NCBI RefSeq assembly: GCF_001971785.1
Contig: NZ_CP019389.1
Span: 321,001-385,000, forward strand
Length of the DNA stretch: 64,000 nt
Source: Seonamhaeicola sp. S2-3
Lineage (GTDB): Bacteria > Bacteroidota > Bacteroidia > Flavobacteriales > Flavobacteriaceae
Direction of reading: 5' to 3'
In this document: positions 18,701 through 20,422 of the stretch, in pieces
How the letters are laid out: every line of letters begins with the position of its first letter
How positions within the stretch are numbered: the stretch's first letter is position 1
The notes under the pieces: model-generated
Seen by the model: only the letters and a program-made list of their open reading frames with translations
Told to the model about the DNA's origin: nothing
Database searches by the model: none
Made by a program: the position numbers and the translations under genes

Positions 18701-18786
18701 AGTCGATAAATTCAATTAAAACTGATTTTATCTTGATTTTGTTAGGCACAAGCTAAAAAAATCACACTATATCTTAATATTCTAAA

Positions 18787-18828
18787 GTTAATAATTATTT
18801 TAGCAGGTATAATAAATTGTTAATAATT
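18787..18828 (+). promoter_or_regulatory. Direct repeat upstream of the toxin gene, possible antitoxin operator
   Basis: GTTAATAATT occurs at 18787-18796 and 18819-18828, 32 bp apart (about three helical turns), ending 18 bp before the toxin start. HigA-type antitoxins usually repress their own operon through sites here; that these are the sites is inference. Confidence 0.35.
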
Positions 18829-18846
18829 TAGCTATAACTAAACATT

Positions 18847-19239
18847 TTGAAGAAATTTTCCTTAAGTTTGTCACCGCATATTACAAGCACTACAAAAATT
18901 AGTGTTTATGAATTAAATAAAAATGGGAAAAGTCTTTTTGAACCGTTCGTTGATGAAATTGAAAAAGATGGCTACTTATTTGACAAGTTGGCTGGAGCTC
19001 TCAGAATTATTGAAGAAACTTCTAACCTCAAAAGATATCCAAAAACAAAATTTAGAGAACTTAAAGGTCATAACTTAAGCTGCAAAGTATATGAAGCTAA
19101 ATCTAATATTATTAGAGTATATCTTTTTCACGAAGAAAAAACAGGTAGAGTCATAATAACTGGTGGACTAAAAGATAATCAAGATAAAGACATAAAAGCA
19201 ATTTTGAAAATTATAAAAGAATATAATGATGAGAAATAG
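18847..19239 (+). CDS. HigB/RelE-superfamily toxin (Gp49-like) of a TAC module
   Basis: A 130-residue protein of the phage-derived Gp49/HigB branch of RelE-type mRNA interferases. Helical FEPFVDEIEKDGYLFDKLAG is followed by strands around FRELKGHNLSCKVYEA, IIRVYLFHEE and RVIITGGLKDN, and a final helix. Basic and polar residues of the last strands would form the RNase site. Family members cleave ribosome-bound mRNA. The start is a TTG (no ATG in frame nearby). The gene overlaps the antitoxin gene by 14 bp, toxin first, the order typical of higBA. Assigned from fold pattern and neighbourhood. Confidence 0.82.
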   Translation: MKKFSLSLSPHITSTTKISVYELNKNGKSLFEPFVDEIEKDGYLFDKLAGALRIIEETSNLKRYPKTKFRELKGHNLSCKVYEAKSNIIRVYLFHEEKTGRVIITGGLKDNQDKDIKAILKIIKEYNDEK

Positions 19240-19657
19240 AGATAGTATACGCGAAAAAATTTTAAATCAACCATCTTACTGGGTTGAAGGTATAAATAGC
19301 TTTCTCTATAATGCTATTTTGGAATATATGGAAGATAACAATATGAATAGAACTGAATTAGCAAGTCATCTTGGAATATCAAAAGGCAGAGTTTCTCAAA
19401 TCCTAAATGATGGAGAGATTAATTTTAGTATTGAAAAAGTTGTTCAAATAGCTTTAAAGGTTAATAAATTTCCAGTTTTTGAACTTAAAGATAAGAATTC
19501 TTATTTAGATGATTTAAACTCTAATAATCATAAAACAAAAGATTTAAGCTATTATGAAAATGACAGCTTTTCTGAAGTTTACTCGAAGAATAAAAAGGAT
19601 AGTAAAATAATTCATCTTTACAGTAATAATGAATTTACAAAACAATTAGCACTTTAA
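19226..19657 (+). CDS. HigA-like HTH antitoxin with long C-terminal tail
   Basis: A 143-residue protein. Residues about 30-80 form an XRE/Cro-type helix-turn-helix (NRTELASHLGISKGRVSQIL). Residues about 85-143 are a polar, probably disordered extension with scattered aromatics (LSYYENDSF, IIHLYSNNEF). Ordinary HigA antitoxins end soon after the HTH. A C-terminal extension is what 'chaperone addiction' antitoxins use to make folding depend on a SecB-like partner, and the next gene, 1 nt downstream, encodes one. It would neutralise the upstream toxin and repress the operon. Confidence 0.85.
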   Translation: MMRNRDSIREKILNQPSYWVEGINSFLYNAILEYMEDNNMNRTELASHLGISKGRVSQILNDGEINFSIEKVVQIALKVNKFPVFELKDKNSYLDDLNSNNHKTKDLSYYENDSFSEVYSKNKKDSKIIHLYSNNEFTKQLAL

Positions 19658-19658
19658 A

Positions 19659-20123
19659 ATGGCTAAAAAAACAAATACAAATAAAGATAATATTGGATAC
19701 AGAATTTCTCAAATTCATTCTTTAAAATTCTCTTTTAAAGACATTGAAATAGAAAGATTGAATCAATTATTTGAAACCCAAAATGCTTTAGCTTTAAACA
19801 CGAGCACGTCATTGAATATTGATAAAGAGAAATCAACTATTATAATTGATATTAACACACAATTAGTTGACAATGAAAAAGAAAATGTTTTAGTTGAACA
19901 TTCTGGTAGAACAGTTTATATAGTAAAAGGTTTAGATAGTGTTTATAATGAAGGTGAAAATAATTTTGATCTTCCTGATGGTTTAGTCATTCAGTTATTT
20001 AGCATTGCTTACTCTCACGCAAGAGCTTTATTAGCGACTGAAATAAGTCCTACTATTTATAAAGATAAATATATGTTACCTGTAATTGACCCTAGAGTAT
20101 TTTTAAAAAAAGATAACAAATAA
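19659..20123 (+). CDS. SecB-like chaperone of a toxin-antitoxin-chaperone module
   Basis: A 154-residue protein, close to the 155 of E. coli SecB. The pattern is SecB-like: antiparallel strands (IHSLKFSFKDIEIERL, LNIDKEKSTIIIDINTQLV, RTVYIVKG), then the crossover and long helix DGLVIQLFSIAYSHARALLATE, then the end ...MLPVIDPRVFL, which matches the LPPINPxxFL end of SecB. It is the third gene of an operon with a toxin and an HTH antitoxin, 1 nt after the antitoxin stop. Known TAC modules (such as M. tuberculosis higB1-higA1-Rv1957) use this chaperone to fold and protect the antitoxin. Whether it also serves general secretion is open. Confidence 0.8.
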   Translation: MAKKTNTNKDNIGYRISQIHSLKFSFKDIEIERLNQLFETQNALALNTSTSLNIDKEKSTIIIDINTQLVDNEKENVLVEHSGRTVYIVKGLDSVYNEGENNFDLPDGLVIQLFSIAYSHARALLATEISPTIYKDKYMLPVIDPRVFLKKDNK

Positions 20124-20133
20124 AAAAGCCAGT

Positions 20134-20422
20134 GCCCAACACCGGTAAGCGTTGCACAACTCGTCATCAGGAATAAATGGATAGTTTTTGAATTATTAAA
20201 AATAATTAAAAGCCCCATTTATCAATTAGTTATGTTTTACAAAAAATAGCATAACAAGTACATATTGACGGAATTCATGGTTGTGCAACAGACACAATGG
20301 CTATAAGTAATTGCTTGTTTTCGCCTACTTCTGAAAATCCTCTCGGATTTTCAGCTTGGTGTGTACTTGCAAATTTAAGAGCTAACCCACGCAAATACTC
20401 ATAGCCAAAACCGTTAAACGAA
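20134..20422. repeat. Nested palindromic element downstream of the TAC operon (attC-like in form)
   Basis: Two nested inverted structures. GTTGCACAAC (20151-20160) pairs with GTTGTGCAAC (20280-20289). GGCTATAAGTAATTGC (20299-20314) pairs with GCAAATACTCATAGCC (20391-20406; 14 of 16), enclosing a perfect hairpin CTGAAAATCC-tctc-GGATTTTCAG (20331-20354). The ends GCCCAAC (20134-20140) and GTTAAAC (20413-20419) fit the RYYYAAC / GTTRRRY cores of integron attC sites. The element is longer than typical attC sites and short core matches arise by chance. I recall similar sequence between genes in other Bacteroidota, so a dispersed repeat is the cautious label. Confidence 0.6.

What the first reader, a model, noticed from the sequence alone, without database searches (positions are those of the whole stretch)
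18847..20123. Toxin-antitoxin-chaperone (TAC) operon directly downstream of secA
Seen: three tightly packed genes. A HigB/Gp49-like toxin overlaps an HTH antitoxin by 14 bp, and a 154-residue SecB-like protein follows after 1 nt. The antitoxin has about 60 extra polar residues after its HTH. Known: in TAC systems such as M. tuberculosis HigB1-HigA1-Rv1957, a SecB-like chaperone binds a C-terminal 'addiction' tail of the antitoxin; some TACs give phage defence. Inference: this is a flavobacterial TAC. The SecA next door lacks the usual C-terminal zinc finger that docks SecB, so the chaperone is probably dedicated to the antitoxin.
Basis: partly seen in the sequence, partly recalled or inferred. 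Interest (0 to 1): 0.85.

Follow-up and report, generated by a model that had tools for sequence, protein, structure and literature searches.

The report
Toxin–antitoxin–chaperone operon on gene cassette
Next to secA lies a three-gene 'poison, antidote and antidote-guardian' system; relatives that lack the guardian gene also carry a shortened antidote, as expected if the antidote's end makes it depend on the guardian.

Summary
In detail: three co-directional genes, with a 14-bp overlap and then a 1-nt gap. This is a toxin–antitoxin–chaperone (TAC) operon. The toxin has a RelE/HigB fold (AlphaFold2 pLDDT 93; best PDB Z 12.9). The antitoxin is an HTH protein with a 60-residue variable tail. The third protein has no Pfam SecB match, but its model (pLDDT 88) hits SecB first and then the M. 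tuberculosis TAC chaperone Rv1957; sequence links it to SecB only through intermediates. In 48 of 53 loci found through the chaperone, the same gene order recurs. (1) Nine relatives lacking the chaperone all have antitoxins of only 108–118 residues. In the two closest, DNA homology stops inside the tail, so tail end and chaperone are missing together: evolutionary evidence for chaperone addiction. (2) A palindrome 20 nt before the toxin is a likely operator; its consensus occurs three times in 395 genomes, always before this toxin. (3) The operon looks like an integron-type cassette; a congener carries a different cassette at the same site. SecA adjacency is therefore incidental. TAC is a known kind. 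Toxicity, chaperone dependence and phage defence are untested.

The parts
18847..19239 (+). toxin, 130 aa, RelE/ParE superfamily fold (HigB/Gp49-like), TTG start
   Evidence: TIGR02683 matched by 9 of 11 clade members, best E 2.5e-8; AF2 pLDDT 93.1, PDB best 6af4 Z 12.9, then YafQ/RelE about 9
19226..19657 (+). HTH antitoxin, 143 aa (HigA-like)
   Evidence: HTH_3 27.1 bits vs cut-off 23; profile matches HigA structures 4mct/4mcx/6chv at E 1e-3 to 3e-3
19475..19654 (+). variable antitoxin tail, about 60 residues, candidate chaperone-addiction region
   Evidence: core conserved and tail variable in the clade
19580..19654 (+). last 25 residues of the tail (119-143), absent in the chaperone-less relative that is 85% identical
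   Evidence: L149 homology ends at window 19581 and L150 at 19551
19659..20123 (+). SecB-fold chaperone, 154 aa
   Evidence: AF2 pLDDT 87.9, pTM 0.81; Foldseek top hits SecB, E 2.7e-6, prob 1.0, and Rv1957 5mtw, E 1.6e-4; Z 11.0 and 9.0; PADLOC PDC-M64C E 6.5e-11
18827..18842 (.). palindrome TTTAGCTATAACTAAA, probable operator for autoregulation
   Evidence: conserved before the toxin start in this clade; this form occurs once in the 3.75-Mb genome; the consensus occurs 3 times in 395 genomes, all before this toxin
18741..18747 (+). left cassette junction, GTTAGGC (GTTRRRY-type core)
20128..20419 (+). attC-like imperfect hairpin element, RYYYAAC core 20134-20140 to GTTAAAC 20413-20419; repeat family of the genome's cassette array
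   Evidence: 17 further partial copies in the genome; structure and boundaries

Best explanation
A toxin-antitoxin-SecB-like chaperone (TAC) operon carried on an integron-type gene cassette. Proposed working: the RelE-fold toxin is probably an mRNA-cleaving ribonuclease (inferred from fold). The HTH antitoxin neutralises it and represses the operon at the palindrome (inferred). The antitoxin's last about 25-35 residues keep it unstable unless the cognate SecB-like chaperone binds them (supported by joint absence in relatives; not shown biochemically). If the chaperone is titrated, for example by a phage structural protein as in CmdTAC and HigBAC, the antitoxin would be degraded and the toxin would stop growth (inferred by analogy).
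For: Gene order and overlap. RelE/HigB toxin fold. HigA-like HTH. SecB fold, with Rv1957 among the top hits. Sequence bridge: family A1 to PF02556-positive Bacteroidota chaperones A3 (hhalign 95.7%, E 1e-8), and A3 to canonical SecB (97.9%, E 5e-13). Some relatives have homologous TA pairs with PF02556 chaperones (L064, L065, L070). Trio in 48 of 53 chaperone loci. Nine chaperone-less relatives have antitoxins of 108-118 aa, against 129-160 aa in 12 of 13 TAC members; in L149 and L150 homology ends inside the tail. TAC antitoxins end in A/G/S in 39 of 52, toxins in 5 and chaperones in 7, in line with the LAA-type ClpXP end reported for TAC antitoxins (PMC11618068). No other SecB-like gene in the genome.
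Against: No functional data. Direct profile comparison with canonical SecB fails (6%). The toxin is below curated cut-offs. The own antitoxin ends in LAL, not LAA. Tail and chaperone similarity are not positively correlated over 52 trios. One TAC member (L088) has a short antitoxin of 119 aa. Chaperone-less relatives include MAGs, where assembly errors are possible.
Confidence: 0.9

Rival explanations
1. An ordinary two-gene HigBA-type module, with a SecB-fold gene that merely sits downstream and serves protein export.
For: Neighbouring secA; chaperone-less relatives of the TA pair exist.
Against: Trio order recurs in many lineages away from secA; chaperone-less relatives carry a shorter antitoxin; SecA lacks the SecB-docking zinc finger; congeners have no such gene beside secA.
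Confidence: 0.05
2. The third protein shares the SecB-type fold but is not a chaperone; it is a second antitoxin or regulator that binds toxin or DNA directly.
For: No Pfam/NCBIfam match; direct profile match to canonical SecB absent.
Against: Top structural matches are SecB and a TAC chaperone over the whole length, well above unrelated rows (Z 11 and 9 against about 5); the tail end is missing when it is missing.
Confidence: 0.06
3. A decayed or silent operon.
For: None beyond the TTG start.
Against: All three frames are open with the typical overlaps; operator and start spacing are conserved; the closest TAC relatives (L151, L152) have the same architecture at 42-66% identity.
Confidence: 0.03

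Closest known systems
M. tuberculosis HigB1-HigA1-Rv1957 (TAC)
   Same: order toxin-antitoxin-chaperone; RelE/HigB toxin; HTH antitoxin with variable C-terminal extension; SecB fold (5mtw, Z 9.0)
   Different: very low sequence identity (7% over the aligned structure); chaperone without PF02556 match; no Trp pair in the tail; carried on an attC-like cassette
HigBAC / CmdTAC / MqsRAC anti-phage TACs of E. coli
   Same: chaperone-controlled antitoxin logic; SecB-like third protein
   Different: CmdT is an ADP-ribosyltransferase; phage triggers known for CmdTAC and HigBAC, unknown here; no phage test here
PADLOC candidate system PDC-M64 (A/B/C)
   Same: chaperone matches PDC-M64C, E 6.5e-11; same trio layout in relatives
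   Different: own toxin only E 4.6e-4 to one PDC-M64B model; antitoxin hits no PDC-M64 model; a separate toxin/antitoxin clade
Integron gene cassettes with toxin-antitoxin genes (chromosomal integrons)
   Same: complementary GTTRRRY/RYYYAAC ends, attC-like hairpin, own probable operator, array with a neighbouring tyrosine recombinase
   Different: recombinase does not reach the IntI model cut-off; large attC-like element; single cassette at a remote site

Membership tests
TAC system | toxin, antitoxin and chaperone genes in one operon | tested here: met
TAC system | SecB-fold third protein | tested here: met
   AF2 + Foldseek + VIA-align
TAC system | antitoxin with variable C-terminal extension beyond the HTH | tested here: met
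TAC system | antitoxin activity depends on the chaperone through the extension | tested here: inconclusive
   evolutionary support only: short antitoxin in 9 of 9 chaperone-less relatives; no biochemistry
TAC system | toxin toxic and neutralised in vivo | not testable with these tools
   needs expression assay
Pfam SecB PF02556 / export SecB | sequence match to PF02556 | tested here: not met
   no match even at E 10; none in genome
Pfam SecB PF02556 / export SecB | partner SecA with C-terminal zinc finger | tested here: not met
RelE/ParE superfamily (HigB/Gp49 type) | RelE fold | tested here: met
RelE/ParE superfamily (HigB/Gp49 type) | curated cut-off of TIGR02683 or PF05973 | tested here: not met
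   TIGR02683 20.8 bits vs 62.85; PF05973 no match; clade members reach E 2.5e-8
PADLOC PDC-M64 | all three component models match | tested here: not met
   only C clearly
Integron cassette | complementary core sites bounding the gene and an attC-like hairpin | tested here: inconclusive
   11/14 at the TAC itself (not significant in a free search, p 0.25); same-site cassette in congener 13/14, array copies mostly 11-13/14, same repeat family
Integron cassette | IntI integrase in the genome | tested here: not met
   TIGR02249 204 bits vs cut-off 265; the recombinase beside the array does reach NF040815 (231.6 vs 220)

The most novel reading that the evidence does not exclude
Bacteroidota TAC operons, this one included, are cargo of an integron-like cassette system run by a Xer-type recombinase without a full IntI match. 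TA cores and chaperones are re-paired during evolution, and losing the chaperone is tolerated only together with losing the end of the antitoxin tail, which maps the addiction segment to about 25-35 residues.
Probability: 0.55. Interest if true: 0.65.

Novelty: new member of a known kind. Interest (0 to 1): 0.5.

Why it matters
TAC control is known from a handful of experimental systems. This clade offers sets of close relatives with and without the chaperone, so the chaperone-addiction segment can be mapped from nature and tested with one deletion. It also shows that a SecB-like chaperone can be invisible to Pfam, so TACs in Bacteroidota are probably undercounted, and it suggests how they spread (gene cassettes).

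Tried and rejected
Direct hhalign to canonical SecB: not significant. phmmer and profile searches of the PDB with chaperone or toxin sequence: nothing useful. Tail-chaperone co-variation over 52 trios: no positive signal, partial correlation -0.17; the tails diverge too fast for this measure, so it neither supports nor excludes matching specificity. Phage and plasmid records, viral contigs and a first genome scan with the chaperone: no relatives. Free search for complementary cassette ends at the TAC alone: p 0.25; the cassette claim rests on the congener and the array. A scan of all TAC loci for complementary ends gave 4 loci against 0.65 expected; I take only L020 and L025 as convincing. A regex for array junctions failed and was replaced. 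I had recalled PD-lambda-2 as a TAC; the paper says its third component is related to a P4 phage antitoxin.

Full report
Observation. The three genes are at the stated coordinates: toxin 18847-19239 (TTG start), antitoxin 19226-19657, third gene 19659-20123, with a 14-nt overlap and a 1-nt gap. The TTG start is supported by a conserved distance of about 20-22 nt from a palindrome; the relative L079 also starts with TTG at the same distance.

Toxin. Pfam finds nothing and NCBIfam gives a weak TIGR02683 match. The clade (A4) shows it better: 9 of 11 members match this RelE/ParE model, best E 2.5e-8. The AlphaFold2 model (pLDDT 93) matches the S. pneumoniae toxin 6af4 at Z 12.9 and YafQ/RelE at about 9; Foldseek agrees but with E only 5e-3. 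That it cleaves mRNA is an inference from fold.

Antitoxin. HTH_3 is above the cut-off and the clade profile finds HigA structures. The core is conserved while the tail of about 60 residues is not.

Chaperone. No Pfam or NCBIfam match, but PADLOC PDC-M64C matches at E 6.5e-11. The model (pLDDT 88, pTM 0.81) hits SecB chains first (E 2.7e-6, prob 1.0), then Rv1957 bound to its antitoxin peptide (E 1.6e-4); Z is 11.0 and 9.0. By sequence, the family reaches SecB only through Bacteroidota chaperones that do match PF02556. Several of those sit behind toxins and antitoxins of the same type as those paired with the PF02556-negative kind.

Survey. Of 53 distinct loci found through the chaperone, 48 have a toxin-like and an antitoxin-like ORF directly upstream, 3 have the antitoxin only (one at a contig edge) and 2 have neither. 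In a first class-wide sample, all 9 complete loci of the window's toxin clade were trios; one more ended at a contig edge, and two weak hits were ordinary two-gene RelE-type modules. A scan of named genomes then gave a mixed picture: L151 (Bacteroidales MAG), L152 (Myroides marinus) and L156 are trios; nine others have no chaperone. These nine have antitoxins of 108-118 residues, against 129-160 in 12 of 13 trios (L088 has 119). L149 is 85% identical to the window in toxin and antitoxin, but its homology stops at window 19581, after antitoxin residue 118; L150 stops at 19551. The tail end and the chaperone are thus missing together, with different end points. This is what chaperone addiction predicts: a deletion of the chaperone alone should free the toxin. 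The direction of change (loss or gain) was not shown with a tree, and the relatives are not all independent.

Degron-like ends. In 52 non-redundant trios, 39 antitoxins end in A, G or S (background 25% for A/G/S/V, P 8e-14), whereas toxins do so in 5 and chaperones in 7. The literature describes LAA-type ClpXP ends in TAC antitoxins (PMC11618068). The window's own antitoxin ends in LAL.

Operator. TTTAGCTATAACTAAA at 18827-18842 occurs once in the genome. The consensus TTTAGTTATAACTAAA occurs three times in 395 genomes, each time before this toxin (L079, L082, L087). Autoregulation by the antitoxin is inferred.

Mobility. None of six congeners has the trio between secA and the M23 peptidase gene, and the content there varies; only one congener has a related chaperone, elsewhere. 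After the chaperone lies a hairpin-rich element with 17 further partial copies in the genome, clustered at 3.02-3.08 Mb, where copies directly follow genes. Congener G892 carries a different gene at the same site, bounded by complementary ends (13/14) and the same right flank ACC|GTTAAACGAA. Array copies behave alike. A 388-aa tyrosine recombinase (NF040815 above cut-off, IntI model below) lies beside the array. In genome G168 another TAC sits directly beside a 60% identical recombinase with complementary ends 13/14; L025 has the same ends. I therefore read the TAC as an integron-type cassette; the ends at the window locus alone (11/14) would not prove it.

Known or new. TAC systems, chaperone addiction and TAC phage defence are known (PMC5105189, PMC6377645, PMC9519451, PMC11618068; HigBAC as cited in PMC11980606). 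This is a new, divergent member. The natural with/without-chaperone comparison and the cassette setting I did not find described, but the paper library is incomplete.

Noticed in passing
own genome 3.022-3.093 Mb (L131-L133, L145): Chromosomal integron-like array: cassettes with complementary GTT.../...AAC ends, attC-like hairpins, tandem duplicate cassettes of about 1.05 kb, and a codirectional Xer-type recombinase beside a small zinc-ribbon-like ORF.
   Followed up: partly
L144 / L020 (G168): Another TAC is the first cassette beside a 60% identical recombinase, inserted in opposite orientation to the array.
   Followed up: partly
L132, L133 (array 3.04-3.08 Mb): A 525-aa transposase-like ORF is repeatedly found between two halves of the attC-like repeats, apparently inserted at the same place.
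   Followed up: no
L161 (IMG/VR contig, 38 kb): A 65% identical toxin plus antitoxin with a full-length tail lies at the end of a contig classed as viral.
   Followed up: no
L079 compared with window, L063, L016: TA core close to the window's (toxin 50% identical) but chaperone of another subfamily: apparent swapping of chaperones between TA cores.
   Followed up: partly
L066, L067: Loci with a PF02556-type chaperone followed by a gene that by eye resembles a CmdT-type ADP-ribosyltransferase; possible CmdTAC relatives with another gene order.
   Followed up: no
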